DNA of 64,000 bases from Dechloromonas hankyongensis (GTDB lineage: Bacteria > Pseudomonadota > Gammaproteobacteria > Burkholderiales > Rhodocyclaceae). The notes under the pieces were generated by a model. It saw only the letters and a list, made by a program, of their open reading frames with translations, had not been told where the DNA came from and ran no database searches. This document shows positions 17,198 through 23,003 of the stretch, piece after piece. The translations under genes and the position numbers were made by a program. Numbering within the stretch: position 1 is the stretch's first letter; each line of letters begins with the position of its first letter. The stretch spans positions 1 through 64,000 of the forward strand of contig NZ_JAKLTN010000002.1 in assembly GCF_022012295.1 (NCBI RefSeq), read 5' to 3'.

Positions 17198-18586
17198 ATG
17201 CGAAATTTTGGCCGATTTTTACTGATCACCGTGGCGACATTGCCGGCTTGGGCCAGCGATTTGACTGATCCTTTCGCCACGGCTGACATGCTGCCGTTGA
17301 AGCCCTCGCCGAGCTTGATGGCGCGGGTGGGCGAGGCGCCTTGCGCCACCGCCCTGCCCGGAACGCCCTTGACCGCCGTCGATGCGGTCGACCTGATGCT
17401 GTGCAACCATCCGCAGACCCGTGAAGCCTGGGCGGCGGCCCGGGCGCAGGCGGCGCTGGTCGGGGTCGCCAAGGCTGGCTGGTTGCCGACCGTGACCGGA
17501 ACGGCCAGTGCGACCCGTTTCGAATACCAGAACAACGCCTTCACCCGTGATACGGCGGCGATCACACTGTCCTGGCTGCTCTACGACTTCGGCCAGCGCT
17601 CGGCCAATGTCGAGAACGCCCAGCAATTGCTGAGTGCGGCGGCGGCAACCCAGGATGCGACGGTACAGACGCTGTTTCTCAGCGCCTTGCAAGCCTATTA
17701 CTCGGCGCAGGCGACACAGGCGGCGGTGACCTCGGCGCTGGAGGCGGAGCGTTCGGCCCGCGAGAGTTTCCAGGCGGCCGAGGCGCGCTATAGCGTCGGC
17801 GTCGCCACACCGGCCGATCGCCTGCAGGCGCAGACCGCGCTGTCGCAAGCCGCGCTGAACCGCATTCGGGCCGAGGGCGATGCCCGCAATGCGCTGGGTA
17901 CCCTGGCCAACGCGCTCGGTTTCGACGCCCAGCAGCGCATCGTGCTTGCCGAGCTGCCCGCATTGCCAGCCGGCATCAGTTTTCAGAAGGAAGTCGATGC
18001 GCTGATCGCTGACGCCGTCGTCCGGCGTCCGGATCTGCGGGCGGCTGAGGCGCAGCTCAAGGCGGCGCAGGCCAGCATCGATCTGGCCCGGGCCCAGGGC
18101 CGGCCGACCATTTCGCTGGGGGTCGGACCGACCTGGCAGGAATCGGCGGGAGTTACCCAGCAGGGGGCCACCTTCGGCCTGACCCTGAATGTGCCGATCT
18201 TTTCCGGTTTCGATACCACCTACCGCGTGCGCGCGGCCTCGGCGCAGGCCGACGTGCGTGCCGCGCAACGCGACCGTATCCGCAGCCAGGTGGCCCTCGA
18301 TGTGTGGAAGGCCTACCAGAGCCTGACCACGGCCACGCAGAGCCTGCAGACGACAGCAGACCTGGTGGCCAGCGCCGAGCAGTCCGAACGGGTTGCGCTG
18401 GGCCGCTACAAGGCCGGCGTCGGCACCATCCTCGATGTATTGTCGGCCCAGTCGGCCCTGGCCAGCGCGCGTCTGCAACGCATCCAGGCCCAACTCGACT
18501 GGAACGTCTATCGCGCCACGCTGGCCCAGTCCGTCGGCGCACTCGATTACACGCTGCTGCAACCGGCAGCGCAAGGAAGACCATGA
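17198..18586 (+). CDS. TolC-family outer membrane efflux protein
   Basis: Outer membrane channel of 462 residues with a signal peptide (RNFGRFLLITVATLPAWA) and two internally repeated OEP domains. LLYDFGQRSANVENAQQLL and VPIFSGFDTTYRVR are the paired strand-turn motifs, and long Ala/Gln-rich segments form the coiled-coil tunnel. First gene of a five-gene cluster; its stop overlaps the adaptor start (ATGA). The 173 bases between it and pyrD hold no gene and no promoter that I can defend. Confidence 0.9.
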   Translation: MRNFGRFLLITVATLPAWASDLTDPFATADMLPLKPSPSLMARVGEAPCATALPGTPLTAVDAVDLMLCNHPQTREAWAAARAQAALVGVAKAGWLPTVTGTASATRFEYQNNAFTRDTAAITLSWLLYDFGQRSANVENAQQLLSAAAATQDATVQTLFLSALQAYYSAQATQAAVTSALEAERSARESFQAAEARYSVGVATPADRLQAQTALSQAALNRIRAEGDARNALGTLANALGFDAQQRIVLAELPALPAGISFQKEVDALIADAVVRRPDLRAAEAQLKAAQASIDLARAQGRPTISLGVGPTWQESAGVTQQGATFGLTLNVPIFSGFDTTYRVRAASAQADVRAAQRDRIRSQVALDVWKAYQSLTTATQSLQTTADLVASAEQSERVALGRYKAGVGTILDVLSAQSALASARLQRIQAQLDWNVYRATLAQSVGALDYTLLQPAAQGRP

Positions 18587-19806
18587 AACATCTCGGCAAG
18601 ACTTTGATTGGCGCCGCCGTCGTCGCGGCCCTGGCAGGCGGCGGTTACTGGTATGTCCAGCAGCGCGCCGCGCAGAATCCGGAAACGCGCTACAAGTTCG
18701 CGTCCGCCGACAAGGGCGACGTCACGCAGACCGTGTCGGCCAACGGCACGCTGACCCCGCTGGTGCTGGTCAACGTCGGCACCCAGGTGTCGGGCACGGT
18801 GAAGAAGCTGTACGTCGATTTCAATTCCAAGGTCAGCGCCGGCCAGAAGCTGGTCGAACTCGATCAGTCGCTGCTGCAGACCGTGGCGCGGCAGAGCCGG
18901 GCGAACGTGGTGAATGTCCAGGCGTCCTACGACCTGGCCAAGGCCAGCGAGGCCCGGATGCGCGCCTTGCTCGACAAGGAGTACATCTCCCGTCAGGACT
19001 ACGATCAGTCACTGCAGAACCTCAAGTCGGCGCAGGCCCAACTGGTGCAGGCCCGGGCGGCGGCCGACAAGGACGAAGTGAATCTCGGTTATTCGGTCAT
19101 TACCTCGCCGGTTTCGGGCGTGGTGGTGGCGCGGCTGGTCGATATCGGGCAGACCGTGGCGGCCAGCTTCCAGACGCCGACGCTGATCCAGATCGCCCAG
19201 GACCTGACCAAGATGGCCATCGACACCAGCTTTGCCGAGGCCGACATCGGTAACATCAAGGAGGGCATGCCGGTGCGCTTCACCGTCGATGCCTTCCCAA
19301 ATCGCAGTTTCCAGGGCGTCGTGCAGCAGATTCGCCTGAATCCAACCAACCAGCAGAACGTCGTCACCTACAACGTGCGCATCAACGTCGATAACCCGGA
19401 ACTGATCCTGCTGCCGGGCATGACGGCCTATGTCAGCATCGGCGTGCAGAAGCGGCCGGGCGCCTTGCTGGTGCCCAATGCGGCACTGCGCTTCAAGCCG
19501 GCGGATGCGGGCAAGAAGGAAGGCGATGCCGGCAAGCCGGCGGCGGGCGGACCGGGCCAGGGCAACGGCGGGCCGGGCGGCGGAGCGCCGGGCGGTGGCA
19601 AGGGCAAGAAGCGCGACAGCCAGAGCGGCACGGTCTATGTGCTGGCCGGCGGCGAGATCAAGCCGGTCGCCGTGCAGATCGGCATCACCGACAACCGGAA
19701 TACCGAAATCGTCAGCGGCGACCTGAAGGAAGGCGATCGCGTCGTTACCGGCGAAAATGCGTCGTCCGACAAGAAGCCGTCGTCGGTCGGCATGCGGATG
19801 TTCTGA
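18583..19806 (+). CDS. MacA-like periplasmic adaptor
   Basis: Membrane-fusion protein of 407 residues linking an ABC pump to the TolC channel. It has an N-terminal anchor (about 8-24), a lipoyl half-motif (VGTQVSGTVKKLYVDFNSKV), an alpha-helical hairpin (about 95-160), the second lipoyl half (ITSPVSGVVVARLVDIGQTV) and beta-barrel domains. A Gly/Pro/Lys-rich insertion near 305-345 interrupts the C-terminal membrane-proximal domain, which is unusual in length. Starts inside the channel stop codon. Confidence 0.9.
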   Translation: MKHLGKTLIGAAVVAALAGGGYWYVQQRAAQNPETRYKFASADKGDVTQTVSANGTLTPLVLVNVGTQVSGTVKKLYVDFNSKVSAGQKLVELDQSLLQTVARQSRANVVNVQASYDLAKASEARMRALLDKEYISRQDYDQSLQNLKSAQAQLVQARAAADKDEVNLGYSVITSPVSGVVVARLVDIGQTVAASFQTPTLIQIAQDLTKMAIDTSFAEADIGNIKEGMPVRFTVDAFPNRSFQGVVQQIRLNPTNQQNVVTYNVRINVDNPELILLPGMTAYVSIGVQKRPGALLVPNAALRFKPADAGKKEGDAGKPAAGGPGQGNGGPGGGAPGGGKGKKRDSQSGTVYVLAGGEIKPVAVQIGITDNRNTEIVSGDLKEGDRVVTGENASSDKKPSSVGMRMF

Positions 19807-21750: not shown

Positions 21751-23003
21751 CCAATCGTCGCCATTTCCTGATCGCCGCCGGGTTGATGCCCTTGCTGCAT
21801 CCGGCCTTTGCCGCCAACCGGCGCGTCGTCGTGGTCGGCGGCGGCTGGGGCGGGCTGGCCGCGGCCCGTCATCTGCGCCAACTGGCGCCCGAACTGGACG
21901 TCACGCTGGTCGACCGCCAGCCGGCCTTCATGTCCTTCGCCCTGAGCAACCGCTGGCTGGTTGAACCGGGGGCGGCGTCTTGGGCGCGCCACGATTACGC
22001 CCGGATCGCCCGCGACTTCGGCTACCGCTTCGTGCAGGCCGAGGTCGACGGTATCGACCTCGCGCAGCGCAGCGTGGCGACCAAGGCTGGCGCCTTGCCC
22101 TACGACTGGCTGGTCCTGGCGCCGGGCATACGCGAAGACTGGTCGGCCTGGCAGACGAACGATCCGCAGGCGCTAGCCGAAGTGCGCCGCCGCCATTCCG
22201 GCGCCATGGTGTCGGCGGCTGATCTGCCGGCGCTCAGGCAGCGCCTGACCAATTTCAAGGGCGGCGATCTGCTGATGACCATCCCGCCGGCGCCGTACCG
22301 CTGCCCGCCGGCGCCCTACGAGCGGGCGATGCTGATTGCCTGGTGGCTGCAGAAGCAGAAGATTCCGGGCAAGCTGGTCATCGTCGATCCCAATCCGATC
22401 ATGCCGGCATTCCGCAACATCCTGCTCGACCGCTTCAAGGCGCAGGTCTCCTATTTCGACCACGCCAAGGTTCGCAGCATCGATCCGCTGCGCAAGACGG
22501 TCAGCACCGATATCGACGACATCCGTTTCGACGAGGCCTTGCTCTGCCCGCCGCAACAGGCCGCCGACCTGCTCTGGCAAGGCGGGCTGATCCGTCCAGA
22601 GGAAGGCGGCAAGCCCAGCGGCTGGGCCGCCCTCGGGCCGACCGATTTCCGCAGCGCGGCCGACGGGCGGGTTTTCGTCATTGGCGATGCGGCCGGACTG
22701 GTCTCCACGCAATTCGGCTACTTCCCGAAGACCGGCCAGGTCGCCTGCCGCATGGGGCAGGCGGTGGCCCGCCAGATCGCGGCGCAGGCCACCGGTCAGG
22801 CTCAAGCACCACTCCTGCCAGAGAGCGTCTGCCATGTGACGACCAGCGTCGATCCGCTGGAAAGCACGGGCATCGACACCACCTATAAAGACCGAGGTGA
22901 CGGCTTCCTGGTACAGACCGTCAAGCAGACGCGCAACCCGAACCCGAACGGCGAGGATGCCGCCTGGGCCGAGGCCATGTATCGTGATTTTCTGCTGCCC
23001 TGA
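21747..23003 (+). CDS. Sulfide dehydrogenase (FCSD)-type flavoprotein
   Basis: FAD-dependent oxidoreductase of 418 residues in the flavocytochrome c sulfide dehydrogenase/SQR superfamily. It starts with a Tat-like leader (NRRHFLIAAG) followed by the FAD motif VVVVGGGWGGLAAA (27-40). C186 in PYRCPPAPYERA and C334 in KTGQVACRMGQ match the redox disulfide pair of FCSD, and GDAA (313-316) is the second FAD motif. Both catalytic cysteines are kept, so sulfide or polysulfide chemistry is plausible. No cytochrome subunit gene is adjacent. ATGA overlap with the permease ties it to the efflux genes. Confidence 0.82.
   Translation: MTNRRHFLIAAGLMPLLHPAFAANRRVVVVGGGWGGLAAARHLRQLAPELDVTLVDRQPAFMSFALSNRWLVEPGAASWARHDYARIARDFGYRFVQAEVDGIDLAQRSVATKAGALPYDWLVLAPGIREDWSAWQTNDPQALAEVRRRHSGAMVSAADLPALRQRLTNFKGGDLLMTIPPAPYRCPPAPYERAMLIAWWLQKQKIPGKLVIVDPNPIMPAFRNILLDRFKAQVSYFDHAKVRSIDPLRKTVSTDIDDIRFDEALLCPPQQAADLLWQGGLIRPEEGGKPSGWAALGPTDFRSAADGRVFVIGDAAGLVSTQFGYFPKTGQVACRMGQAVARQIAAQATGQAQAPLLPESVCHVTTSVDPLESTGIDTTYKDRGDGFLVQTVKQTRNPNPNGEDAAWAEAMYRDFLLP

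What the first reader, a model, noticed from the sequence alone, without database searches (positions are those of the whole stretch)
17198..23003. Efflux pump translationally coupled to a sulfide-dehydrogenase-type flavoprotein
Channel, adaptor, ATPase, permease and a Tat-exported FAD protein form one cluster, most genes overlapping by one to four bases. The flavoprotein keeps both redox cysteines (C186, C334) of FCSD but has no cytochrome partner here. A combined oxidise-and-export system for sulfur or thiol compounds is a reasonable new hypothesis.
Basis: partly seen in the sequence, partly recalled or inferred. Interest (0 to 1): 0.65.

Follow-up and report, generated by a model that had tools for sequence, protein, structure and literature searches.

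The report
Portable flavoprotein cassette in denitrifying bacteria
The flavoprotein next to this efflux pump belongs to a portable set of three probably exported proteins that bacteria tend to keep or lose together and sometimes place among their nitrous-oxide-reduction genes, so its partners are more likely those two proteins than the pump; its exact job is unknown.

Summary
Two details fail: the second redox cysteine is C362, not C334, and the ATPase-permease junction has a 22-nt gap. The pump is probably not the main partner. FP and two proteins encoded convergently just downstream, a DUF411/CopG-like CxxC protein (23045-23539) and an ankyrin protein (23533-24006), have almost the same distribution over 121 sampled family genomes (26, 27 and the same 27). 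Fourteen of those 27 lack a pump ortholog at 64% identity or more. Two Azonexus hydrophilus strains share exactly this three-gene block, behind the pump in one, after nos (N2O reductase) genes in the other. Nos genes lie near FP in 12 of 80 named loci, 0 of 22 paralog control loci. FP lacks the FCSD flavin-binding domain, the covalent-FAD cysteine and an adjacent cytochrome gene; its closest solved fold is an FCSD flavin subunit crystallised with copper chaperone CopC. Best reading: a periplasmic thiol/persulfide module linked to N-oxide respiration, possibly to copper-sulfur sites of NosZ; that step is inferred.

The parts
17198..18586 (+). TolC-family outer-membrane channel (pump; lineage-specific neighbour of the cassette)
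   Evidence: (PF02321, 1.7e-67)
18583..19806 (+). MacA-type periplasmic adaptor; 4-nt overlap with the channel gene
19806..20507 (+). MacB/LolD-type ABC ATPase; 1-nt overlap
20530..21750 (+). MacB-type permease (MacB_PCD + FtsX), encoded separately from its ATPase; 22-nt gap after the ATPase gene
21747..23003 (+). FP: FCSD-like flavoprotein, Tat-type signal by eye; C186 (codon 22302-22304) and C362 (22830-22832) align with the FCSD redox pair; residue 64 is F where FCSD has the (recalled) covalent-FAD Cys; no PF09242
23045..23539 (-). DUF411 variant (CopG-like; weak thioredoxin match): C33-x2-C36 kept, two other CopG cysteines and Met motifs replaced, extra C125-x3-C129 invariant in 11 rows; signal-like N-terminus by eye
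23533..24006 (-). Ankyrin-repeat protein with signal-like N-terminus (by eye) and C-terminal C151 and C157 invariant in 9 rows; overlaps the DUF411-variant gene by 7 nt and is upstream of it on the same strand
24062..24075 (-). Degenerate FNR/NNR-type palindrome (2 mismatches) 69 nt upstream of the ankyrin start; some relatives have better copies
   Evidence: weak on its own; consensus recalled

Best explanation
The functional unit is a portable three-protein cassette, probably periplasmic: FP, a DUF411-variant CxxC protein and an ankyrin protein. Its place behind a MacAB-TolC pump is one of several locations. FP most likely cycles its C186-C362 disulfide with non-covalent FAD to oxidise or transfer sulfide, persulfide or protein thiols; the DUF411 variant acts as its thiol partner and the ankyrin protein as scaffold or chaperone. 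The module serves N-oxide respiration, probably by maintaining or assembling thiol/copper/sulfur sites of periplasmic reductases (best candidate: clade II NosZ, whose CuZ site contains sulfide). Shown: gene content, cysteines, near-identical distribution, the same block at two loci in one named species, residence beside nos genes. Inferred: export of the two small proteins, substrates, partner roles, target enzyme. About 0.6 for a denitrification-linked thiol/redox module, about 0.2 for the specific CuZ step.
For: Distribution in the same 121 sampled genomes: DUF411 variant 27 (score gap 219 vs 136 bits), ankyrin protein the same 27, FP at 45% identity or more in 26 of them and in no other genome listed. 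G008 has two copies of all three. Best 80 of 235 named loci: DUF411 variant in 71, always convergent downstream, 54 within 200 bp; ankyrin in 55, of which 45 beside the DUF411 gene and 8 directly upstream of FP on its strand. A. hydrophilus ZS02 and DSM 23864 share one blastn block, these three genes, 88.4% identical; behind the pump in one, after nosBDGHFLY-tlpA and a transporter gene in the other (nosD, nosL, SBF, narG by profile; the rest by eye). Nos genes near FP in 12 of 80 named loci vs 0 of 22 paralog control loci. Clade II NosZ in 22 of 27 module genomes vs 12 of 94 others (19 of 27 without three fragments I assigned); within the genus 39 of 44 vs 8 of 16, and 32 of 33 vs 3 of 8 in the 41 better genomes. 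NirJ 26 of 27 vs 48 of 94. FNR-type boxes (at most 1 mismatch) upstream of the ankyrin gene in 17 of 65 vs 55 of 756 other gene starts. Closest solved fold 5n1t.
Against: Five module genomes have no clade II NosZ (G001 99%, G008 96%, G114 94% complete, plus G066, G090), and 12 genomes have NosZ without the module. Shared ancestry inflates all these statistics: the pump ortholog itself correlates with the module (13 of 27 vs 18 of 94, p 0.005; looser threshold 18 of 27 vs 21 of 94, p 4e-5). Ten of the 12 nos-linked loci share one arrangement and may be one event. In the 80 named loci NirS, NirDL-type and NnrS queries found nothing. Upstream of FP itself FNR-type boxes are not enriched (2 of 51). 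Nine of 80 loci show no DUF411 variant in the flank; in one of them (L141/G369) it lies 17 kb away, in L159/G353 it was not found in the stretches read. The FPs of G020 and G081 fall outside clade A in the tree, so a strict count is 24 of 27. The DUF411 variant has lost CopG cysteines and methionines. No expression or biochemical data.
Confidence: 0.6

Rival explanations
1. One reading: pump and flavoprotein form one oxidise-and-export system for sulfur or thiol compounds; FP oxidises the compound in the periplasm and MacAB-TolC removes it.
For: Adjacency in 23 of 60 genus genomes, kept even where the DUF411 and ankyrin genes are 17 kb off (L141/G369). L184, a distant locus with an unrelated channel-adaptor-ATPase-permease operon (permease 41% identical), has that pump directly upstream of ankyrin-FP. 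In Thioalkalivibrio, fccAB and copCD lie in the same cluster as four ABC-transporter subunits (PMC5328954, passages).
Against: 30 of 53 genus genomes with the pump show no FP behind it; 14 of 27 module genomes lack the pump ortholog; the block without the pump sits after nos genes in DSM 23864. L184 is 1 of the 58 named loci without the ortholog pump.
Confidence: 0.12
2. Sulfide detoxification or sulfide electron donation: FP is a cytochrome-free FCSD relative that removes H2S from the periplasm of denitrifiers (sulfide is recalled to inhibit N2O reduction) or feeds electrons to a soluble cytochrome.
For: FCSD fold and intact cysteine pair. An FCSD relative with PF09242 and a cytochrome c gene lie between NosZ and an ankyrin gene in L139. 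Clade-B relatives lie with SoxY/Z-like genes in L096 and L097 (by eye).
Against: Own genome already has an FCSD beside a cytochrome and sox genes. FP lacks PF09242, the covalent-FAD Cys and an adjacent cytochrome gene. Does not explain the DUF411-variant and ankyrin partners.
Confidence: 0.2
3. Copper tolerance or copper redox trafficking independent of N-oxide respiration: a CopG-like system with a flavin reductase.
For: DUF411 family member solved as 6wis (its name CopG is recalled). Ankyrin gene beside a heavy-metal ATPase in L133. Fold neighbour 5n1t is a CopC complex.
Against: Variant has lost two CopG cysteines and the PGMP/SPGM methionines. Other DUF411 proteins are encoded elsewhere in many of the same genomes, though not in the window's own. 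NirJ/NosZ bias is unexplained.
Confidence: 0.15

Closest known systems
Flavocytochrome c sulfide dehydrogenase flavin subunit (FccB/SoxF; 1fcd, 3vrd)
   Same: Fold (TM 0.80-0.84), RCPPxPYERA cysteine, second redox-type Cys
   Different: No PF09242 domain, no covalent-FAD Cys (F64; C in 2 of 34 clade-A rows vs 13 of 13 FCSD rows), no adjacent cytochrome gene, separate clade
Thioalkalivibrio paradoxus FCSD-CopC complex (5n1t) and the thiocyanate dehydrogenase locus
   Same: Nearest solved fold; FCSD-type flavoprotein with a copper-related periplasmic partner, genes near a copper enzyme (PMC5328954 and PMC5744179, passages)
   Different: Those loci encode fccA and CopCD; here the partners are a DUF411 variant and an ankyrin protein. 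Relation of thiocyanate dehydrogenase to N2O reductase is recalled.
CopG / DUF411 protein (6wis)
   Same: PF04214 and CxxC
   Different: Two other cysteines and the methionine motifs lost, new Cx3C pair, C-terminal extension
AnkB-type periplasmic ankyrin proteins (recalled: accessory to catalase KatB in Pseudomonas; only listings seen)
   Same: Probably exported ankyrin protein paired with a redox enzyme
   Different: Different partner; invariant C-terminal Cys pair; no sequence comparison with AnkB made
MacAB-TolC tripartite efflux pump
   Same: All component types present
   Different: Permease and ATPase are separate proteins; NCBIfam MacA/MacB equivalog cut-offs missed

Membership tests
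Flavocytochrome c sulfide dehydrogenase (FccB) | FCSD_central domain (PF21706) | tested here: met
   70.3 bits vs cut-off 27
Flavocytochrome c sulfide dehydrogenase (FccB) | C-terminal FCSD-flav_bind domain (PF09242) | tested here: not met
   No match in window FP, L035 or L046; matched in L034 and L139
Flavocytochrome c sulfide dehydrogenase (FccB) | Redox-active cysteine pair (identity of the pair recalled) | tested here: met
   C186 and C362, Cys in every row of clades A, B and C
Flavocytochrome c sulfide dehydrogenase (FccB) | Cysteine for covalent FAD attachment (position recalled) | tested here: not met
   F64; C in 2 of 34 clade A, 13 of 13 clade C rows
Flavocytochrome c sulfide dehydrogenase (FccB) | Cytochrome c subunit encoded next to it | tested here: not met
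   None among the ten neighbouring proteins scanned; present beside the own-genome FCSD, L034 9770-10075 (by eye)
Flavocytochrome c sulfide dehydrogenase (FccB) | Sulfide oxidation activity | not testable with these tools
   -
Sulfide:quinone oxidoreductase (type III, selenoprotein subtype) | NCBIfam SQR_III_seleno cut-off | tested here: not met
   86.8 vs 525 bits
CopG (DUF411) | PF04214 domain | tested here: met
   63.3 bits vs 27
CopG (DUF411) | CopG cysteines beyond CxxC and methionine motifs | tested here: not met
   Middle Cys of CGCC, SCHT Cys and PGMP/SPGM Met of 6wis replaced; their role as copper ligands is recalled
CopG (DUF411) | Copper binding | not testable with these tools
   -
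MacAB-TolC pump | Adaptor, MacB-type permease with periplasmic core and FtsX domain, ATPase, TolC channel in one cluster | tested here: met
N2O reductase maturation (Nos accessory) system | Residence beside nos genes | tested here: inconclusive
   12 of 80 named loci, 0 of 22 controls; not at the window locus
N2O reductase maturation (Nos accessory) system | Obligatory co-occurrence with NosZ | tested here: not met
   22 of 27 and 39 of 44; NosZ also without the module

The most novel reading that the evidence does not exclude
FP, the DUF411 variant and the ankyrin protein form a dedicated periplasmic sulfur/copper-handling system for the [4Cu:2S] CuZ centre of clade II N2O reductase: FP generates or relays persulfide or sulfide through its disulfide, the DUF411 variant carries it, and the ankyrin protein docks the client. 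It would be a periplasmic sulfur source for CuZ. A weaker version: it repairs or protects CuZ and other thiol/copper sites during sulfide or NO stress.
Probability: 0.18. Interest if true: 0.85.

Novelty: new variant of a known kind. Interest (0 to 1): 0.6.

Why it matters
Clade II N2O reducers are important sinks of a greenhouse gas (recalled), and how the CuZ copper-sulfide cluster gets its sulfide is unsettled in the papers I saw passages of (PMC6530538: sulfide supply by NosDFY is only suggested; PMC11573801: NosDFY named as a copper-site maturation complex). A three-gene set that is present or absent almost as a unit, is found as the same block behind a pump in one strain and after nos genes in another, and pairs an FCSD-type flavoprotein with a CxxC DUF411 protein gives a concrete, deletable candidate for a missing thiol/sulfur factor in denitrifiers. 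It also shows that tight operon spacing next to a pump can mislead functional assignment.

Tried and rejected
Rejected: C334 as redox cysteine. Rejected: FP as the organism's FCSD; the genome has a separate FCSD beside a cytochrome and sox genes (cytochrome and sox by eye). Rejected as main reading: a selenium role by analogy with the clade-B paralog between selA and selB; FP belongs to another clade, and I recognised no sel genes by eye in the clade-A stretches that I read. Rejected: obligate partner of NosZ. Rejected as evidence: sigma-70 and terminator scans, near or below shuffle level. Led nowhere: plasmid search, one weak hit (Paracoccus alcaliphilus, 35.7%, beside SoxY); literature searches, judged from their listings alone (one search listed 12 of 1,726, 10 of 26), showed no paper recognisable as describing this cassette; the library lacks most subscription journals and the CopG paper. 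AnkB search gave only listings. The home-made gene caller fails on some GC-rich loci (e.g. L092, L095, L100), so family counts rest on tblastn or profile searches. Neighbour names such as NosB, NosG, NosH, NosF, NosY, TlpA, SoxY, SoxZ, FccAB of L097, NarK, Rnf, PyrD and Fdh are by eye. DUF411-variant structure model is only moderate (pLDDT 76). Rows left out of the clade counts: L054 and L055 as a separate pair, and L100_4891 (long branch).
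Full report
What is there. The window carries, on the + strand, a TolC channel (17198-18586), a MacA-type adaptor (18583-19806), a MacB/LolD-type ATPase (19806-20507), a MacB-type permease (20530-21750) and a 418-aa flavoprotein, FP (21747-23003). Three of four junctions overlap by 4, 1 and 4 nt; the ATPase-permease junction is a 22-nt gap. Immediately downstream, convergent, lie a DUF411 protein (23045-23539) and an ankyrin protein (23533-24006), both with signal-like N-termini by eye. The nearest named relatives of FP are Dechloromonas (84-85% identity).

The flavoprotein. FP matches FCSD_central and its model resembles FCSD (pLDDT 88; best PDB match 5n1t_A, TM 0.80/0.85, 27% identity). 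Against 1fcd and 5n1t the cysteines recalled as the redox pair align with C186 and C362. FP lacks PF09242, which the genome's own FCSD and the L139 relative have, and lacks the (recalled) covalent-FAD Cys (F64; Cys in 2 of 34 clade-A, 17 of 21 clade-B, 13 of 13 clade-C rows). A tree of 71 proteins separates clade A (34 rows, 99/98), clade B (21 rows, 99/99) and FCSD proper (13 rows, 100/100). The FPs of G081 and G020 (L054, L055) join clade B with weaker support (93/84), and L100_4891 is a lone long branch.

The genome has three FP-type genes: this one, a clade-B copy between selA and selB after formate dehydrogenase genes, and a true FCSD with a small cytochrome gene beside sox genes (selA and FCSD by profile, the rest by eye).

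Is the pump the partner? Of 60 genus genomes, 53 have the pump permease at 83% identity or more, and by my reading of the table 44 have a clade-A FP. In 23 FP lies directly behind the pump; in the other 21 it is not shown there; 30 of 53 pumps show no FP behind them (contig ends not checked). Estimated spacing varies from -4 to +275 nt. Among the 26 stretches first fetched around family FPs of this type (L035-L060), only L035 has the pump. Of the best 80 of 235 named loci, 22 have the ortholog pump directly upstream. Across 121 sampled family genomes the pump ortholog at 64% identity or more occurs in 13 of 27 module genomes and 18 of 94 others; at E <= 1e-120 in 18 of 27 and 21 of 94.

What is the partner? 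In the same 121 genomes, a model of the FP-linked DUF411 variant finds 27 genomes at 219 bits or more, then nothing until 136 bits (other DUF411 proteins); an ankyrin model finds exactly the same 27 at E <= 1e-25; FP at 45% identity or more is in 26 of them and in no other genome listed (Fisher p about 1e-25 and 1e-27, not corrected for ancestry). The missing case, G077, is an 85%-complete assembly. Counting FP strictly by the tree gives 24 of 27. The set spans 15 of 68 genera, and G008 has two copies of each gene. The models were built from loci around FP, but the genomes were not chosen for adjacency, and in some genomes the genes are unlinked (e.g. G053, G106, G117) while the set is complete.

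In the 80 named loci the DUF411 variant is present in 71, always downstream and convergent, 54 within 200 bp; ankyrin is in 55, of which 45 beside the DUF411 gene and 8 directly upstream of FP on its strand. Nine loci show no DUF411 variant (L141, L153, L154, L159, L168, L171, L175, L205, L211); three of them have short downstream flanks (0.1, 0.9 and 5.1 kb), six have about 8 kb. Two of the nine are close relatives of the window that keep pump-FP: in L141 (G369) the DUF411 variant and ankyrin genes (87% and 85% identical) lie about 17 kb further on the same contig; for L159 (G353) they were not found in the stretches I read, and the rest of that genome was not searched.

The same block at two loci. 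Azonexus hydrophilus ZS02 (L160) and DSM 23864 (L162) share a single block by blastn (default settings, E <= 1e-5) over these 17-kb loci: 2.3 kb at 88.4% identity, starting 13 bp before FP and ending 84 bp beyond the ankyrin start; each protein is about 91% identical. In ZS02 it follows the pump. In DSM 23864 it follows nosB-D-G-H-F-L-Y, a tlpA-like gene and an SBF-type transporter gene, and precedes narK-like genes and narG (nosD, nosL, SBF and narG by profile; the rest by eye).

Link with denitrification. Nos genes lie within the flanks of FP in 12 of 80 named loci, in 11 of them with nosD upstream on the same strand; none in 22 clade-B/C control loci, some of which are shorter. Ten of the 12 share one arrangement (nosD 1.0-1.2 kb upstream) and may be one event. 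NirJ is near in 5; NirS, NirDL-type and NnrS queries found nothing in the 80. In L188 (G028) the cassette is next to NosZ. In the unnamed family genomes module genes, linked or not, lie near NosD, NirS-type, NirDL-type or NnrS genes in several stretches (no control was run for that count). Clade II NosZ is in 22 of 27 module genomes (19 without three fragments that I assigned) vs 12 of 94 others; within the genus 39 of 44 vs 8 of 16 (38 and 7 without fragments), and 32 of 33 vs 3 of 8 among the 41 better genomes. Clade-I-like NosZ is in 1 of 27 vs 35 of 94 by my sorting. NirJ is in 26 of 27 vs 48 of 94. FNR-type palindromes are enriched upstream of the ankyrin gene (17 of 65 vs 55 of 756, p 1e-5, sequences not independent) but not upstream of FP (2 of 51); the window's copy has two mismatches.

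Limits. The pump correlation shows that shared ancestry alone may give p values down to 4e-5 here, so the NosZ and NirJ figures must be discounted; the three-way identity is far stronger. Five module genomes lack clade II NosZ and 12 NosZ genomes lack the module. It is 1 of the 58 named loci without the ortholog pump; the controls had one weak adaptor hit.

Mechanism. I read FP as a disulfide flavoenzyme of the FCSD/SQR fold that lacks the covalent flavin link and a dedicated cytochrome, and works with the CxxC DUF411 variant and the ankyrin protein on thiol, persulfide or copper-sulfur sites of periplasmic N-oxide reductases. The FCSD-CopC structure 5n1t and the fccAB-copCD-thiocyanate dehydrogenase cluster (PMC5328954, PMC5744179, passages) are precedents for pairing such a flavoprotein with copper handling. 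CuZ contains sulfide whose supply was only suggested to involve NosDFY (PMC6530538, passages). Substrate, partner roles and target enzyme are inference.

Novelty. The listings of my paper searches showed no paper recognisable as describing this cassette; most listed papers were not opened. The folds are known; the three-protein combination, its portability and its nos-linked residence appear new to me on that basis.

Noticed in passing
L033:8726-10060 (G000:C8:394734-395972); also L066, L067, L071: A clade-B FCSD-like flavoprotein lies in the selA-selB stretch after formate dehydrogenase genes (selA by profile, others by eye): possible link to selenium or formate dehydrogenase maturation.
   Followed up: partly
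L096:7594-10013, L097:5657-9645: Clade-B relatives beside SoxY/SoxZ-like genes, and in L097 also beside FccAB-like genes (by eye): a sulfur-oxidation context for this flavoprotein group.
   Followed up: partly
L139:2172-8867 (similar in part in L121, L140): Cytochrome cd1 gene, clade II NosZ, small cytochrome c, an FCSD-type flavoprotein with PF09242 and an ankyrin gene together: a second FCSD-ankyrin pairing at a nitrous oxide reductase.
   Followed up: partly
G000:C8:288423-290216 and G000:C8:295268-297061: Two clade II NosZ copies with identical scores 5 kb apart in the window's genome, plus one clade-I-like copy on C1.
   Followed up: no
L184:2504-9663: An unrelated tripartite MacB-type pump operon directly upstream of the ankyrin-FP cassette; independent pump neighbour or chance.
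   Followed up: partly
L216:12992-17098, L125:1159-4900: Sco-like gene and MacB-type ATPase/FtsX-type permease genes (by eye) near NirJ, ankyrin and DUF411 variant.
   Followed up: no
window:10695-17024: Rnf electron-transport genes and pyrD (by eye) upstream of the pump; the part visible in A. hydrophilus ZS02 (L160) has the same order.
   Followed up: no
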